NCBI GenBank assembly: GCA_944358865.1 | Contig: CALVRV010000016.1 | Span: 1 to 32,221 of the forward strand | Reading direction: 5' to 3' | Length of the DNA: 32,221 nt | From: an uncultured Bacilli bacterium | GTDB taxonomy: Bacteria; Bacillota_I; Bacilli_A; RFN20; CAG-826 | In this document: piece after piece, positions 1-23,648 of the stretch | How positions within the stretch are numbered: the first letter of the stretch is position 1 | How the letters are laid out: every line of letters starts with the position of its first letter | Program-made: the position numbers and the translations under genes | The notes under the pieces: model-generated | What the model saw: the letters and a program-made list of their open reading frames with translations, nothing else | What the model was told of the DNA's origin: nothing | The model's database searches: none

Positions 1-142
1 GCGCTACAACTTATAAATGGTTAATTTCAGATGATGATGGGTTTGGTAGTAATGTAATTCTTATCAGCGCTACAACTGTAGGCGCGACAGGTGTTAATGA
101 TCTTAAGTTTGGTAGTAATGTAATTCTTATCAGCGCTGCTTT
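1..142 (+). CRISPR. Trailer end of a CRISPR array (36-bp repeat, 30-bp spacers)
   Basis: One complete 36-bp repeat lies at 41-76; it starts GTTTGGTAG and ends CTACAAC. A second copy at 107-142 is identical over its first 31 bases and degenerate in the last five (GCTTT instead of ACAAC). Bases 1-10 are the last ten bases of a third copy. The spacers at 11-40 and 77-106 are both exactly 30 bp and unrelated to each other. The 66-bp period, GTTT start, AC end and partly complementary ends (GTAG/CTAC) match type II repeats of Bacilli. Decay of the final repeat marks the leader-distal end, so the leader and cas genes should lie upstream, outside the window. No cas gene, tracrRNA or anti-repeat is visible here. 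The subtype is inferred from repeat form only. Confidence 0.88.
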
Positions 143-284: not shown

Positions 285-1160
285 ATGAAAGTTGCTGTTG
301 TTACAGATCAAAATGCTGGATTTACAATAGATGAAGCAAAACAATTATCTCTTAATGTTATTAAGATGCCTATTGTTATTGAAGGTGAAGATTATTTTGA
401 AAATTATACAATTTCTGAAGAAGAATTTTTTAATAAATTAGCGAGTACTGAAAATGTTAAGACTAGTCAACCATCCATTGGTGAAATTATGGATTTATGG
501 ACTAATTTATTAAAAGAATATGACAATATTGTTCACATTCCTATGTCAAGCGCTCTTAGTGAAGGATGTGCTTCAAGTAAAGCCTTAGCAAATGATGAAC
601 AATTTAAAGGTAAAGTATTTGTTGTAGATAATCACCGTATATCTGTTACCTTAAAAAGTGCAGTTAGAGATGCTTTATATTTAGCAAGTATTGGTAAAAG
701 TGGTGCCGAGATTAAACAAATATTAGAAGATGAAGCTTATAATTCAACAATTTATATTATGGTTGATACTCTTAAATATTTAAAAAGGGGTGGCAGGGTT
801 ACACCTAGTGCAGCATTACTTGGAGAAGCATTACATATTAAACCAGTTTTAACTATTTTAGGTGGTAAACTCGATGCTTTTAAAAAAGTCTTAGGAACTA
901 AAAAAGCAAAAAGAGTCATGATTGACGCAATTAAAAATGATAGAAATAATAAATTTAAAGATATTAAAGATGAAGATTTAGTGTATGCAATTGCTTATAC
1001 ATATGATAAAGATGCTGCTAATATGTTTAAAGATGAAGTAGTTAAAGAATTTAATTTAGATCCTAATAATGTTGAAGTTAATCCTTTATCATATAGTGTT
1101 GCTACTCATATTGGGCCTGGTGCTTTAGCGGTTACTATTTCTAAAAAAATATATAGGTAA
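285..1160 (+). CDS. DegV family fatty-acid-binding protein (FakB-like)
   Basis: This 291-aa protein has the length and motifs of the DegV/FakB family, which binds one fatty acid and presents it to the kinase FakA for phosphorylation and entry into phospholipid synthesis. Visible landmarks are TSQPS (60-64), the SSALSEG loop (88-94, where the family usually has SSGLSG), GGRVT (about 168-172) followed by ALLGEALHIKPVL, and HIGPGALAV near 274-282. It is cytosolic, with no signal peptide. Four bases separate it from the thioesterase gene, so the two are probably cotranscribed. A separate small FakA-like domain follows at 1755, but a complete FakA is not in the window. The family call is firm; the fatty-acid role comes from family knowledge, and which fatty acid is bound cannot be read from the sequence. 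Confidence 0.9.
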   Translation: MKVAVVTDQNAGFTIDEAKQLSLNVIKMPIVIEGEDYFENYTISEEEFFNKLASTENVKTSQPSIGEIMDLWTNLLKEYDNIVHIPMSSALSEGCASSKALANDEQFKGKVFVVDNHRISVTLKSAVRDALYLASIGKSGAEIKQILEDEAYNSTIYIMVDTLKYLKRGGRVTPSAALLGEALHIKPVLTILGGKLDAFKKVLGTKKAKRVMIDAIKNDRNNKFKDIKDEDLVYAIAYTYDKDAANMFKDEVVKEFNLDPNNVEVNPLSYSVATHIGPGALAVTISKKIYR

Positions 1161-9628: not shown

Positions 9629-11435
9629 GTAAATCACCTCCTTGTTTATTTTGAGAATAATATACTTCTTGATAAATTTTATTAGTTTTTAATAAATTAT
9701 CTGGAGTATCAAATGCATCGATTTTTCCATCGTTCATGACAATAACTCGATCGGCATCACAAACTGAAGCAATACGTTGTGCGATGATAAATTTGGTTAC
9801 TTCTGGAATATATTGTTTAAATGAAGAACGAATTTTAGCATCAGTTTTAGTGTCAACTGCAGAGGTAGAGTCATCTAAAATTAATACTTTTGGATTTTTT
9901 AATAACGCTCTTGCGATACATAATCTTTGTTTTTGACCACCTGAGACATTTGTGCCTCCTTGTTCAATCATATGATCATAACCATCTTTAAATTGCGTAA
10001 TGAATTCATCAGCACACGCTAATTTGCAAGCGTGAATAACTTGTTCATCACTAGCGTTTTCATTACCCCATTTAAGGTTATCTTTAATAGAGCCAGAAAA
10101 TAAGACATTTTTTTGTAAAACTACCGCAACATTATTTCTTAAAGTAGTTAAATCATATTCTTTGACATTGACTCCTCCTACTTTAACTTGACCATCAGTG
10201 GTGTCATATAATCTTGAAATTAAATTTACTAAGGTCGATTTAGCGCTTCCAGTTCCACCAATAACACCGATAGTTTCACCAGATTTAATATGTAAATTAA
10301 CATCACTTAAGGCAAATCTTTCTGCGTCAGCTTTATATTTAAAAGAAACATTTTCAAAATCGATAGAGCCATCACTAATTTCATAAATTGGATTATCGTT
10401 ATCTTTAATTGTTGGAACTTCAGTTAATATTTCATAAATACGTCTTAATGAAGTTGTTGCCATCGTAATAGAAATTAAGACTTGTGATAACATCATCAAT
10501 GAAAATAATGTTTGAACACCATATAGCATTAAAGAATTAAAGCTTCCTAAAGTCATTATTCCATTTAAGATATAATTACCACCAAACCAAGTACATAAGG
10601 TAATTAATAAATAGATAGCAAATTGCATAACTGGATTTCCTAAAACGAATATTTTATCCGCTTTAATAAAATTATTAGCAACTGCATCAGCGCGTTTTTT
10701 AAATAACTGTTTTTCATAATCGCTTCTTACATATGATTTAACAGTTCTCATACCTTTAATATTTTCTTCAATACGGTCATTTAAATCATCTAATTCATCA
10801 AAGACTCTTACAAATATTGGAGAGGCTTTTAAAATAATAAAAGTTAGAGCAACTGCAACAATTGGAATAATAATTAAAAATGTCCACCATAATTGTGGGG
10901 CTAAAACAAAACACATCACTAATGAAAAAATAATCATTAATGGTCCTCTAACAGCAATACGAATAATATTCATAACCGCCATTTGGACATAATAGACATC
11001 TGTTGTAATTCTTGTTACTAGACCACTTGTCGCGTATTTATCAATATTTTCAAAAGAAAATGTTTGTATTTTTTCAAACATATCATGTCTTAAATTTTTT
11101 GATAAACCAAGTGACGCTGTCGCAGCAAATCTACCTGATAATAAACCAAAAATAAGGCTAAGAATCGCTAACGGGAGCAATATTGAACAATAAATTAAAA
11201 TACTATCCATTGCTTGTCTTGCAATTTCATCAGTAATGACTTCATTAAGAGCTAATTCATTTAATGTATCAATTAATTGAGCAATAACAATAGGGATAAT
11301 ACATTCCATAATAACTTCTAACGCGACAAATATTGGCGTTAATATCATTTGTAACTTAAATTCGCGAACAGATTGAGCAATCTTTTTTGTAATCTTCCAG
11401 TATGATACTTTGTTTTTATTTTTTGTTTTTTTCAT
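9621..11435 (-). CDS. Heterodimeric ABC exporter subunit with degenerate ATP site
   Basis: A 604-aa partner half-exporter with about six TM helices (roughly 30-325) and an ATPase domain. The motifs are altered as in the non-catalytic half of asymmetric exporters: Walker A GGTGSAKST (about 391) has Ala for the third Gly, Walker B is LILDDSTSAVD (about 515) with Asp replacing the catalytic Glu, and the switch His is Gln (IAQR, about 548). The signature VSGGQKQ (about 497) is intact and would serve the partner's ATP. This supports a heterodimer of the TM287/288 or BmrCD type. The ATG at 11435 is chosen because a GGGAGG SD (11441-11449 region) lies just upstream and the longer frame begins at a TTG before that SD. 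It is the first gene of a two-gene leftward operon. Confidence 0.9.
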   Translation of the reverse strand: MKKTKNKNKVSYWKITKKIAQSVREFKLQMILTPIFVALEVIMECIIPIVIAQLIDTLNELALNEVITDEIARQAMDSILIYCSILLPLAILSLIFGLLSGRFAATASLGLSKNLRHDMFEKIQTFSFENIDKYATSGLVTRITTDVYYVQMAVMNIIRIAVRGPLMIIFSLVMCFVLAPQLWWTFLIIIPIVAVALTFIILKASPIFVRVFDELDDLNDRIEENIKGMRTVKSYVRSDYEKQLFKKRADAVANNFIKADKIFVLGNPVMQFAIYLLITLCTWFGGNYILNGIMTLGSFNSLMLYGVQTLFSLMMLSQVLISITMATTSLRRIYEILTEVPTIKDNDNPIYEISDGSIDFENVSFKYKADAERFALSDVNLHIKSGETIGVIGGTGSAKSTLVNLISRLYDTTDGQVKVGGVNVKEYDLTTLRNNVAVVLQKNVLFSGSIKDNLKWGNENASDEQVIHACKLACADEFITQFKDGYDHMIEQGGTNVSGGQKQRLCIARALLKNPKVLILDDSTSAVDTKTDAKIRSSFKQYIPEVTKFIIAQRIASVCDADRVIVMNDGKIDAFDTPDNLLKTNKIYQEVYYSQNKQGGDLHE

Positions 11436-11464
11436 AGCTTTCCTCCCTTCGACATGCAATTAGT

Positions 11465-18663: not shown

Positions 18664-20163
18664 ATGGTTAAACTTGAAATGATTAATATCAACAAATCAT
18701 TCTTCGGTGTTCAAGTTTTACATAATGTTTCCTTAAAAGTTCATAAAGGCACTGTTCATGCTTTAATTGGTGAAAATGGTGCTGGTAAATCGACATTGAT
18801 GAACGTATTAGGTGGTGTCCATCAACCTGATTCAGGTATTATTAAAATTGATGGCAAAGAAACTGGCACTTTAAATGTTAATGCATCTGAAAAATTAGGT
18901 GTCGCTTTCGTCCACCAAGAGATAAACTTATTTAACGATTTAAAAGTTTATGAAAATATTTTCATCACTAAGGAAATTACTAAATTTGGTTGTATCAATG
19001 CTAAAAAAATGATAGAAATGTCAAATAATTTGTTTAAACAATTAGGTGTTGATATTGACGCTAACGAATTGGTGGCCAATTTATCAACTGGAAAAAAACA
19101 ATTACTTGAAATTTCTAAAGCACTATTTGCTAATGCTGATTTGTTTATTTTAGATGAACCTACAACAGCCTTATCAAATGAAGAAATTGATCACTTTTTC
19201 AATATTATTAATAATCTTAAAAAACAAGGCAAAACATTTATTTTTATTTCTCATAAAATGCCAGAAATATTTAAATTATGTGATGAATATACTGTTTTAA
19301 GAAACGGATATTATATTTCAAGTGGTAAAATTTCTGATACTACTCCTGAACAAGTAACCAAGGATATCGTCGGCCCTGGATATGATAGTACCGATTATTA
19401 TAAAAGAAGAAAACTAGGCGAAGTTGTGTTAGATTTAGTTAATTTTTCTGGTCCTGGTTTTAAAAATATTAATTTAAAAATAAGGAAAGGCGAAATCGTT
19501 GGATTTACAGGTTTGCAAGGTTCTGGTTCAAGTGAATTAATGCAGACTTTATTTGGAGTTAATCGCTCTAGTGGCGGTGACGTAATTGCTTTTGATAAAC
19601 AAATAACAAATAAATCAATTAAAAAAGTAATGCGAAATAAAGTTGGAATGGTTCCATCTAATAGAAAAGAAAATTCTGTTTTTGAATCGCTTTCTATTTT
19701 AGATAATACATCTGTGGCTTCAAATAATGTTAATAAAAACCCAATCTTTTCACCTCGAAAAGAAAGAAAATTATATGAAATTTATAAAAAACAATTAAAT
19801 ATTAAAGCTTCTTCTTCTAATGACTTGCTCGTATCTTTATCAGGCGGCAATCAACAAAAAGTTATCATTGGAAGATGGCTTAAAACTAACGCTGATATAT
19901 TATTACTTGATAATCCTACTCAAGGTATTGACGTAGGTGCAAAAAGTGAAATTTATAAATTATTATTGGAATTAGCAAGTCAAGGTAAAACAATTATCTT
20001 TAATACACTTGAAGTTCCTGAAATTATGAAGTGCGCTGATAGATGTTGCGTTTTCTATCATGGCACAATTGAAAAAATATTAGATCATGACGAAGTTAAT
20101 GAAGAAAGAGTCATGTATTATGCAACAAGCGCAAATAAAGCGGAGGTAGGTGCAAATGTTTAA
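18664..20163 (+). CDS. Sugar ABC transporter ATPase, two ABC domains (RbsA/XylG/MglA type)
   Basis: A 499-aa cytosolic ATPase with two fused nucleotide-binding domains. Domain 1 has Walker A GENGAGKST (36-44), signature-like STGKKQ, and Walker B LFILDEPTTALS. Domain 2 has a degenerate Walker A GLQGSGSSEL (about 284) lacking the Lys, an intact signature LSGGNQQK (about 392), and LLLDNPTQGIDVGAK (about 414) with Asn in place of the catalytic Glu. Asymmetry of this kind is normal for the CUT2 family, where domain 2 is the weak site. AAAGGAG precedes the ATG. The gene overlaps the permease gene by 8 bp, so the pair is translationally coupled. It powers uptake of the sugar captured by the lipoprotein upstream. 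Confidence 0.93.
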   Translation: MVKLEMININKSFFGVQVLHNVSLKVHKGTVHALIGENGAGKSTLMNVLGGVHQPDSGIIKIDGKETGTLNVNASEKLGVAFVHQEINLFNDLKVYENIFITKEITKFGCINAKKMIEMSNNLFKQLGVDIDANELVANLSTGKKQLLEISKALFANADLFILDEPTTALSNEEIDHFFNIINNLKKQGKTFIFISHKMPEIFKLCDEYTVLRNGYYISSGKISDTTPEQVTKDIVGPGYDSTDYYKRRKLGEVVLDLVNFSGPGFKNINLKIRKGEIVGFTGLQGSGSSELMQTLFGVNRSSGGDVIAFDKQITNKSIKKVMRNKVGMVPSNRKENSVFESLSILDNTSVASNNVNKNPIFSPRKERKLYEIYKKQLNIKASSSNDLLVSLSGGNQQKVIIGRWLKTNADILLLDNPTQGIDVGAKSEIYKLLLELASQGKTIIFNTLEVPEIMKCADRCCVFYHGTIEKILDHDEVNEERVMYYATSANKAEVGANV

Positions 20164-22186
20164 TCCTTTTTTAAGAGATGATACCTATTTTAAAAATGGG
20201 GAATCATTTAAAAGAAGAATAACAGGAAAAGAATTTGGTTCCAGTTTAAAAAACTTTTTTAAAGTTAGTTGGTCTAAAGCAAATTTTATTTACATTTTCC
20301 TTGTTGTTTTACTTATTTATATTTTTTCAACAATTAGATATTTTAATTGGGCGATGTTTACAGGTATTTTTACATCAACTATTATGGTAGGTATTGTAGC
20401 TGTTGGCATGGGGCTTATCATATTGCTTGGTGAAATTGATTTATCTGTTGGTAGCATGTATGCACTAAGCATTATTTTGGCGATATTTTGCTATAATTCA
20501 ACCATTGTTTCGACCGGGAATACCTTATTAGGCTTCTTTGTGTGTTTGCTAGTTGCCATTTTTTCTGGGGTAATATTTGGCTTTATAAACGGTTTCTTTA
20601 TTGGTATTTTAAAAATGCCATCATTTATTGTCACTTTAGCGACAATGTTAATTTATCGTAGCGTTGGTCAATATATAGGCGACGTCGTTAGAACAAATGC
20701 TAACACCTCGAGCTGGGTTAATGGTTCTATTTTTAATATGTTAAATTATGGGCCTGATTTTAATAACTGGGTTCGTGAATTAGGTGTCGCTCAATGGGCT
20801 GCGATTACTTTGCCCACCCTCTTATTTATTTTAACTGCCGTTTTAATTTGGGCGATGACAAAATATACTAAATTTGGTCGTAAAATTTACGCTGTTGGTA
20901 GTAATCCTAAAGCTGCTGGTCTTGTTGGTATTAAATCTAATTGGATGAAAACTATTGTTTTCTCTATTGCTGGCGCCTTAGTTGGCTTTGCTGCATTTTT
21001 ACATATTGCCACTAGAGGTAATGTTGACTGTGCAACAAGTGGCAATTCTTATGAATTATACGCTATTGCTTCTGTTGTTTTAGGCGGTATTGCTATGAGT
21101 GGTGGTCGAGGCACTATTATCGGTGTAATTTTTGGTGCTGCAGCATTCCAAACCATCGATAAAATTATTGCTGCATTGAATTTAAATCCATTCTTAAACG
21201 ACGCTATCAAAGGCGGAATTTTAATTGTAGCTATTTTATTACAAGTTATTCATTTTGATAAACAATTTTATGTATCTTTATTACAAAAACTTAATGTTAT
21301 ATTTACACCTAACAAGGATTTAATTCTTGAAGCAAAATATAAAACCGAATGCGAAAACTTAGAAAAACTTTATACTAACAAAATTAACAAAGTTAATCAT
21401 TCAAAATTAAGTGAAGAAGAAATTGCTGCAAAAATTAATGGCTTATTAGATGAAAAAGAAGCTAAACTTCTTGATTTGAAAAATAAATATGATGTTTTGA
21501 TTGAAAAAGCTAAAGTTGAAGCTAAAGTTCACGACGAAAAAGAAGAACTTAAAGCAAAAATTAAAACTAAAAAACATGAAATTTTAAATCAAAAACAATA
21601 TGATATTTATTTATTAAATAATAAGAAAAAAGAACTTTCTCCATGGCAAGGTGATTATTATAAATTTGAAAAACAATTAAGTCTAGAACACGCTAAACTT
21701 GCATATAATAATAATCAAGACATCCTTGAATATAAATCTAGATTTGGTATGGATGCTAAACAAATTGAATCTTTAAGAGAATTTATATTACCTTATGCCG
21801 GCGAAAATAAAGATAAAATTAATGCTGAATATGATGCGAAATTAGCAAAATATAATGCCTATCAAGAAAAAATTAATCAAGTAAAAGTCAAACTTGAAGC
21901 ATCTAATAAAGATTTGATTGAAAAATTAAATAATTCTTATGATGCTAAAATTGAAAAGGCTGTTTCTAAAGACGAACAAAATAATGAACAATATAAAGTT
22001 AAAAAACAATCTTTAGAACAAAAAGAAAAAGATAAATTAGCCTTAAAAGAGCAAAAAGTTAAAGATAAAGCGGATCGTAAAGCTCAAAAAGAAGCTTTAA
22101 AAGCTGAAAATAATGCTCATAAAGAAGAAGTTGAAAAACAACTTAACAAACGTTTAGAAACAATTATTAAAAATAGAAAAAAATAA
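20156..22186 (+). CDS. Sugar ABC transporter permease with long C-terminal coiled-coil tail
   Basis: A 676-aa protein. Residues about 35-380 are a CUT2 (RbsC/XylH-type) permease with 8-10 TM helices and the hallmarks GEIDLSVGSM (about 96-105), KMPSFIVTLATM, GSNPKAAGLVGI (a cytosolic loop) and GGIAMSGGRGTIIG. Family members normally end here. This one continues for about 290 residues that are highly charged, rich in Lys, Glu, Asn and Gln, lack TM segments and show long heptad-like helices (for example KLSEEEIAAKINGLLDEKEA; QSLEQKEKDKLALKEQK), ending KNRKK. The frame is open and codon use continuous, so it is a real extension and not a frameshift. Starting at ATG 20156 gives proper spacing from CGGAGG; the longer frame uses a GTG only 3 bp from the SD. 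The tail should be cytosolic. Confidence 0.9.
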   Translation: MFNPFLRDDTYFKNGESFKRRITGKEFGSSLKNFFKVSWSKANFIYIFLVVLLIYIFSTIRYFNWAMFTGIFTSTIMVGIVAVGMGLIILLGEIDLSVGSMYALSIILAIFCYNSTIVSTGNTLLGFFVCLLVAIFSGVIFGFINGFFIGILKMPSFIVTLATMLIYRSVGQYIGDVVRTNANTSSWVNGSIFNMLNYGPDFNNWVRELGVAQWAAITLPTLLFILTAVLIWAMTKYTKFGRKIYAVGSNPKAAGLVGIKSNWMKTIVFSIAGALVGFAAFLHIATRGNVDCATSGNSYELYAIASVVLGGIAMSGGRGTIIGVIFGAAAFQTIDKIIAALNLNPFLNDAIKGGILIVAILLQVIHFDKQFYVSLLQKLNVIFTPNKDLILEAKYKTECENLEKLYTNKINKVNHSKLSEEEIAAKINGLLDEKEAKLLDLKNKYDVLIEKAKVEAKVHDEKEELKAKIKTKKHEILNQKQYDIYLLNNKKKELSPWQGDYYKFEKQLSLEHAKLAYNNNQDILEYKSRFGMDAKQIESLREFILPYAGENKDKINAEYDAKLAKYNAYQEKINQVKVKLEASNKDLIEKLNNSYDAKIEKAVSKDEQNNEQYKVKKQSLEQKEKDKLALKEQKVKDKADRKAQKEALKAENNAHKEEVEKQLNKRLETIIKNRKK

Positions 22187-22248
22187 TCTTCATTTATATC
22201 TTTAAGATATAATTATTCTTCATTTATCTATAATTATAAATATCATAA

Positions 22249-22278
22249 TTGGCCTTTTAAAATATTAGTTAAGATAAT
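22249..22278 (+). promoter_or_regulatory. Possible xylA promoter
   Basis: TTGGCC (22249-22254) and GATAAT (22273-22278) are separated by 18 bp. The 142-bp gap before xylA also holds a perfect palindrome, ATATCTT-T-AAGATAT (22196-22210), and two copies of TCTTCATTTAT (22187-22197 and 22217-22227), 30 bp apart. Confidence 0.4.
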
Positions 22279-22282
22279 TATT

Positions 22283-22301
22283 ATTTTAGGTCGCTTAAAA
22301 T
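22283..22301 (+). promoter_or_regulatory. Candidate operator at the xylA transcription start
   Basis: ATTTTA (22283-22288) and TAAAAT (22296-22301) form an inverted repeat around GGTCGCT, placed where transcription from the predicted promoter would begin. It differs from known Bacillus XylR sites. AT-rich arms make chance occurrence possible. Confidence 0.25.
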
Positions 22302-22328
22302 CATAATAAAGAAAGGAAAAAATACATT

Positions 22329-23648
22329 ATGAAACGTTATGATGAAATTAAAAAAATCGAATATTTAGGACCAAATAGCAAGGAGCCATTTGCTTTTAAA
22401 TATTACAATCCTGATGAAGTAATTCATGGCAAAAAAATGAGAGAACATCTTAAATTTGCTCTTTCTTATTGGCACACTATCAATTATAGCGGTACCGATA
22501 TGTTTGGTGGTGATACTGAGGATAAAACTTTCTCAGAAGAAGATTTAATGAAAAGATATAAAGCAAAAGCGGATTTTGCTTTTGATTTAATGAATAAGCT
22601 TTCCATTGATTATTATTGCTTCCACGATGTTGACGTTTATCCTTATGATCCTAATGATTTGAAAAAATCTTTAAAGAATTTTAATGAAATTGTTGATTAT
22701 TTAGATGAATTACAAAAGAAATACAATAAAAAATTACTTTGGGCTACATCTAATAACTTTGGCGATAAAGCTTTTATGGCTGGTGCGGCAACCTCTCCTA
22801 ATGCTGATGTTTTTGCTTTAAGTGCTTTAAAAGTTAAAGCTGCATTAGATGCTAATATTAAATTAGGTGGTAGTTGTTATGTCTTCTGGGGTGGAAGAGA
22901 AGGATATGACACCTTATTAAATACTAATATGGGTTTAGAATTAGATAATATCGCTAAATTCTTTACCATGGCTCGTGATTATGCACGTAGCAAAGGATTT
23001 AAAGGTGATTTCTTATTAGAACCAAAACCAAAAGAACCAACCAAACATCAATATGACTTTGACGTTGCTACATGTTGTAATTTCTTAAGAACTTATAATT
23101 TATTAGGTGATTTTAAAGTTAATATTGAAGCAAACCACGCCACATTAGCAGGTCATACATTTGAACACGAATTAAGAACTGCTCGTGTTAATGGGGTTTT
23201 CTCTAGTATTGACGCTAACCAAGGTGATCCAATGTTAGGATGGGACACCGATCAATTCCCAACCAATATTTATGATACAGTTTATTGTATGTATGAAGTT
23301 ATTAAAGCGGGTGGATTTGTCAATGGTGGTCTTAACTTTGATGCTAAAACAAGAAGACAATCTAATACTTTTGAAGATATCTTATTAGCCTATATTGCTG
23401 GTATGGATACATTTGCTTTAGGTCTAAGACTTGCTTATAAACTCATTGATGATGGACGTATTGATGAATTTGTTAAAAATAGATATGCAAGTTATGATTC
23501 CGGCATCGGTTTAAAAATTAAAGAAGGCAAAACTACTTTAGAAGAATTAGCGGATTACGCCTTAAATAATCCTCATAAGATTACTGTCGAAAGTGGTAGA
23601 CAAGAATATCTTGAATCTATTATTAATAACGTTTTCTTTGAAAAATAA
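22329..23648 (+). CDS. xylA: Xylose isomerase (class II)
   Basis: A 439-aa enzyme converting D-xylose to D-xylulose, with the usual class II length. Active-site residues are present: His99 and Asp102 in [19 protein letters not shown] (187-196), metal ligands Glu231 ([13 protein letters not shown]), Glu267 and His270 ([12 protein letters not shown]), and Asp295, Asp306 and Asp308 (SIDANQGD and [10 protein letters not shown]). It is cytosolic and works directly with XylB, encoded 18 bp downstream. SD AAAGGA (22312-22317). Its presence behind the sugar ABC genes is the main reason to propose xylose as the transported sugar. Confidence 0.97.

What the first reader, a model, noticed from the sequence alone, without database searches (positions are those of the whole stretch)
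1..142. Leader-distal end of a type II-like CRISPR array
The repeat and spacer sizes (36 and 30 bp, period 66) and the degenerate last repeat are seen directly in the sequence. The repeat form fits type II arrays, so a Cas9 locus is expected just upstream of the window. The two full spacers record past invaders of this lineage.
Basis: partly seen in the sequence, partly recalled or inferred. Interest (0 to 1): 0.7.

Follow-up and report, generated by a model that had tools for sequence, protein, structure and literature searches.

The report
Tail of ordinary type II-A CRISPR array
The first 142 bases of the window are the old (leader-distal) end of a bacterial CRISPR array whose Cas9, Cas1, Cas2, Csn2 and guide-RNA partner lie on another contig of the same genome; it is a normal type II-A immune locus in an uncultured Bacilli-type bacterium, and nothing about it is unusual.

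Summary
In detail: window 1-142 holds the last 10 nt of a 36-nt repeat, two 30-nt spacers, one full repeat and a terminal repeat that differs from the others in 4 of its last 5 bases. The window is a whole contig (C16). The same repeat occurs 9 more times at the end of contig C18 of the same genome, next to cas9-cas1-cas2-csn2. The leader ends in ATTTGAG|GTTT. On the strand opposite cas9 there is a tracrRNA whose anti-repeat is the best pairing partner of the repeat in the 12-kb locus. Two genomes of the same genus keep the whole order cas9-cas1-cas2-csn2-array-degV-thioesterase without a break, so C18 and C16 are most likely two halves of one locus split inside the array. The rival 'repeated 22-aa protein' is refuted: 31-nt spacers on C18 shift the frame and every forward frame has stops. 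It is a type II-A CRISPR-Cas locus: a new member of a known kind, ordinary. No convincing protospacer was found in phages, plasmids or 224 family genomes for any of the 10 spacers, nor in viral contigs for the 6 tested there. So 'records past invaders' is expected but not shown; the PAM is unknown.

The parts
1..10 (+). last 10 nt of a CRISPR repeat, cut by the contig end
   Evidence: GCGCTACAAC = end of the 36-nt repeat; contig C16 starts here
11..40 (+). spacer, 30 nt (TTATAAATGGTTAATTTCAGATGATGATGG)
   Evidence: no protospacer found
41..76 (+). full CRISPR repeat, 36 nt
   Evidence: identical to the 9 repeats of contig C18
77..106 (+). last (oldest) spacer, 30 nt (TGTAGGCGCGACAGGTGTTAATGATCTTAA)
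   Evidence: no protospacer found
107..142 (+). terminal, 3'-degenerate repeat (last 5 nt GCTTT instead of ACAAC)
285..1160 (+). flanking gene, DegV family; not part of the system, but the syntenic neighbour of the array in two same-genus genomes
   Evidence: Pfam DegV 8.1e-58; synteny

Best explanation
The stretch is the leader-distal end of the array of a complete type II-A CRISPR-Cas locus, split by an assembly break inside the array. On contig C18 lie the tracrRNA (about C18:19214-19300, minus strand), cas9 (19337-23536), cas1, cas2, csn2, a leader with a promoter-like stretch, and 9 repeats. The array continues after a gap of unknown length (possibly none) as window 1-142. By homology, Cas1-Cas2-Csn2 add new spacers at the leader end, so the two window spacers are the oldest ones. 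The array transcript pairs with the tracrRNA through the 5' part of each repeat and is processed to crRNAs that guide Cas9 to cut matching DNA. Shown here: the repeats, the genes, the nuclease motifs, the leader motif, the tracrRNA pairing and the synteny. Inferred: expression, processing, cutting, and what the spacers target.
For: Same 31-nt repeat core 9x on C18 and 2x in the window. Cas9 TIGR01865 783 bits with HNH_4, REC, PI, bridge-helix and RuvC domains; cas1_NMENI 288 bits; cas2 72 bits; type II-A Csn2 TIGR01866 115 bits. Leader ends ATATTTGAG|GTTT, the Group 1 motif of type II-A loci (PMC5382924). tracrRNA: -21.2 kcal/mol, best pairing in the 12-kb locus outside the array; 0 of 200 shuffled repeats reach it in the cas9-upstream region; cofold gives a repeat:anti-repeat stem with an internal bulge, a short hairpin, and a terminator hairpin with a T run. 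In all 9 loci compared, each anti-repeat pairs best with its own repeat. Synteny cas9-cas1-cas2-csn2-array-degV-thioesterase is uninterrupted in G004 and G001.
Against: No read or assembly link joins C18 to C16; the join rests on the identical repeat and on synteny. No protospacer was found for any spacer. No expression data.
Confidence: 0.97

Rival explanations
1. The repeats are part of a gene for a protein with 22-aa repeats.
For: 66 nt = 22 codons, and one window frame is open across the repeats: ATTYKWLISDDDGFGSNVILISATTVGATGVNDLKFGSNVILISAAFKNDSVP*.
Against: Three spacers on C18 are 31 nt and shift the frame; all three forward frames of the C18 array hold many stops. The unit sits directly after cas9-cas1-cas2-csn2 and a type II-A leader. 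The repeats are identical at DNA level between unrelated spacers.
Confidence: 0.01
2. The window end is a separate, cas-less (orphan) second array with the same repeat, served in trans by the C18 locus.
For: No sequence joins the two contigs.
Against: C18 ends inside the array and C16 begins inside a repeat, each exactly where the other is missing. In two same-genus genomes degV follows the single array directly. No third group of repeats exists in the genome.
Confidence: 0.02

Closest known systems
Type II-A CRISPR-Cas loci of Streptococcus (S. pyogenes, S. thermophilus), Group 1 leader type (ATTTGAG)
   Same: cas9-cas1-cas2-csn2 order, 36-nt repeat starting GTTT and ending in AAC, 30-nt spacers, ATTTGAG|GTTT leader-repeat junction, tracrRNA just upstream of cas9 on the opposite strand
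   Different: Cas9 only about 31% identical to streptococcal ones; repeat and anti-repeat sequences are its own
Type II-A locus of the same-genus genomes G004 and G001
   Same: same gene order, same flanking degV and thioesterase, near-identical tracrRNA layout
   Different: Cas9 57% identical; repeats differ at positions 6-7 and in the 3' part (GTTTGAGAGTAATGTAATTCTTATCAGCACTAATAC in G004); spacers not shared; terminal repeat intact there

Membership tests
CRISPR-Cas type II-A | array of near-identical repeats with unique spacers of constant length | tested here: met
   11 full-length repeats (9 + 2, the terminal one degenerate), 10 different spacers of 30-31 nt
CRISPR-Cas type II-A | cas9 with HNH and RuvC nuclease domains | tested here: met
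   TIGR01865 6.2e-235; HNH_4, Cas9_RuvC, Cas9_REC, Cas9_PI; motifs GLDVGTNSVGWA, DIDHIYPRS, HHAHDAYLN present in the translation
CRISPR-Cas type II-A | type II cas1 and cas2 adjacent | tested here: met
   TIGR03639 288 bits, TIGR01573 72 bits
CRISPR-Cas type II-A | csn2 (separates II-A from II-B and II-C) | tested here: met
   TIGR01866 3.5e-33, above cut-off
CRISPR-Cas type II-A | tracrRNA with anti-repeat | tested here: met
   transcription itself not tested
CRISPR-Cas type II-A | conserved leader end at the repeat junction | tested here: met
   ATTTGAG|GTTT as in PMC5382924
CRISPR-Cas type II-A | RNA-guided cutting of protospacers next to a PAM | not testable with these tools
   no protospacer found, so no PAM could be read

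The most novel reading that the evidence does not exclude
A divergent type II-A Cas9 (best match among solved structures 9jwk; about 31% identical to streptococcal Cas9 proteins) with its own repeat:tracrRNA pair and possibly an undescribed PAM, in a lineage of uncultured small-genome Bacilli.
Probability: 0.5. Interest if true: 0.25.

Novelty: new member of a known kind. Interest (0 to 1): 0.12.

Why it matters
It shows that this small-genome uncultured lineage carries a complete, apparently intact type II-A immune locus, and it supplies one more Cas9 with its matching tracrRNA and repeat. It changes nothing in the understanding of CRISPR.

Tried and rejected
Protein-repeat reading: rejected. 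Spacer targets: all 10 spacers against phages and plasmids (only chance-level matches, E about 4-5) and against 224 family genomes (only the array itself plus weak A+T-rich matches, mostly to spacer s5). Of those, the G189 match (26/31) lies in an open frame that reads like a condensation-domain protein and the G073 match is 27/31; both were put down to chance. Full spacer 77-106, and 20-22-nt 3' parts of six spacers, against viral contigs: nothing. The repeat itself in viral contigs: nothing. The second HNH_4 hit (C9:15913-16020) is an HNH domain at the C-terminus of a 283-aa protein, not a second Cas9. A stretch in the leader (L014 about 11427-11460) looked like another pairing partner, but it is not conserved in G004 or G001. 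Rfam gave no match at gathering thresholds.

Full report
Observation. The window begins in the last 10 bases of a repeat and shows spacer 11-40, repeat 41-76, spacer 77-106 and a terminal repeat 107-142. The full repeat is GTTTGGTAGTAATGTAATTCTTATCAGCGCTACAAC. The terminal copy agrees over 31 nt and then reads GCTTT instead of ACAAC.

Where the rest is. The window is the whole of contig C16 of a 1.19-Mb, 39-contig genome. The 31-nt repeat core occurs 11 times in that genome: twice here and nine times at the end of contig C18 (25483 to the contig end), with zero matches for the reversed pattern. Contig C18 ends exactly at the end of a repeat, and C16 starts 10 nt before the end of one. The simplest joining gives 11 repeats and 10 spacers; more may be missing between the contigs.

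The cas genes. Upstream of the array on C18 lie cas9 (1399 aa), cas1 (287 aa), cas2 and csn2 (216 aa), all on the strand of the array. Pfam and NCBIfam assign them to type II Cas9 (TIGR01865, 783 bits), type II Cas1 (TIGR03639), Cas2 and type II-A Csn2 (TIGR01866, above its cut-off). The RuvC and HNH motifs GLDVGTNSVGWA, DIDHIYPRS and HHAHDAYLN are present, as in S. pyogenes Cas9 (motif identity from general knowledge; translation). Solved structures matched include many Cas9 proteins, best 9jwk.

Leader. The sequence before the first repeat ends ATATTTGAG|GTTT. ATTTGAG is the commonest 3' leader end of type II-A loci (87 of 167 in that study), shown in S. thermophilus CRISPR1 to be needed for adaptation (PMC5382924). 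This fixes the direction: the leader is on C18, so the window end is the leader-distal, oldest end.

tracrRNA. A pairing scan of the 12-kb C18 stretch, with the array's own complement left out, puts the best partner of the repeat's first 24 nt just upstream of cas9 on the opposite strand (L014:5274-5301, -21.2 kcal/mol). None of 200 shuffled repeats reaches this value in the cas9-upstream region (best -18.0). Cofolding gives a lower stem, an internal bulge, an upper stem, a short hairpin and a terminator hairpin with a T run, the layout of known tracrRNAs. A similar element stands upstream of cas9 in the eight relatives compared, and in the 9x9 table every anti-repeat pairs best with its own repeat. 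For example, position 6 of the repeat is G here and A in G004, and the anti-repeat changes from C to T to match. Caveat: for L015 and G040 the cas9-upstream element was only the third-ranked hit of the scan, and it was picked for the table by its position and its similarity to the others.

Synteny. In two genomes of the same genus the order is: up136 homologue, XRE regulator, cas9, cas1, cas2, csn2, array, degV, thioesterase. Here the first part is on C18, and degV-thioesterase follows the array in the window. This supports one locus split by the assembly.

Rivals. A protein with 22-aa repeats is excluded: although one window frame is open (66 = 3 x 22), three C18 spacers are 31 nt, so the frame shifts, and all forward frames hold stops. 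An orphan second array cannot be excluded by sequence alone but has no support.

Targets. No convincing protospacer was found for any of the ten spacers in phages, plasmids or 224 family genomes. Six spacers were also searched in viral contigs (one in full and as a 20-nt part, five as 20-22-nt parts) with no match; only exact matches could be found there. Therefore the claim that the spacers record past invaders rests on general knowledge of CRISPR, and no PAM could be derived. The absence says little about function, since phages of such uncultured lineages are probably poorly represented in the collections (inference).

Host. The host is therefore probably an uncultured member of the Bacilli with a small genome (inference).

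Verdict.

Noticed in passing
window:1-142, third + frame: One reading frame runs open through both repeats and spacers to a stop (ATTYKWLISDDDGFGSNVILISATT...), because the period of 66 is a multiple of 3; an accident of spacer length, broken on C18.
   Followed up: yes
L064 (G004) array, spacers 1 and 4: The same spacer (CCCTTATTTCAAGACAGCATAAAGATAGGT) occurs twice in the array of a same-genus genome, probably by a duplication.
   Followed up: no
L072 (G001:C27): The same-genus genome G001 has a second, smaller Cas9-like frame of about 1070 aa with cas1 and cas2 on a short contig, perhaps a second type II system of another subtype.
   Followed up: no
G042:C23:15114-19311: In one order-level relative the cas9 homologue is broken by stops and frame changes (three separate matches).
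   Followed up: no
window:2450-4483: 677-aa protein with an Endonuclease I domain (Pfam PF04231, 4e-37) and a long remainder without a Pfam match; conserved near degV in G004 and G001.
   Followed up: no
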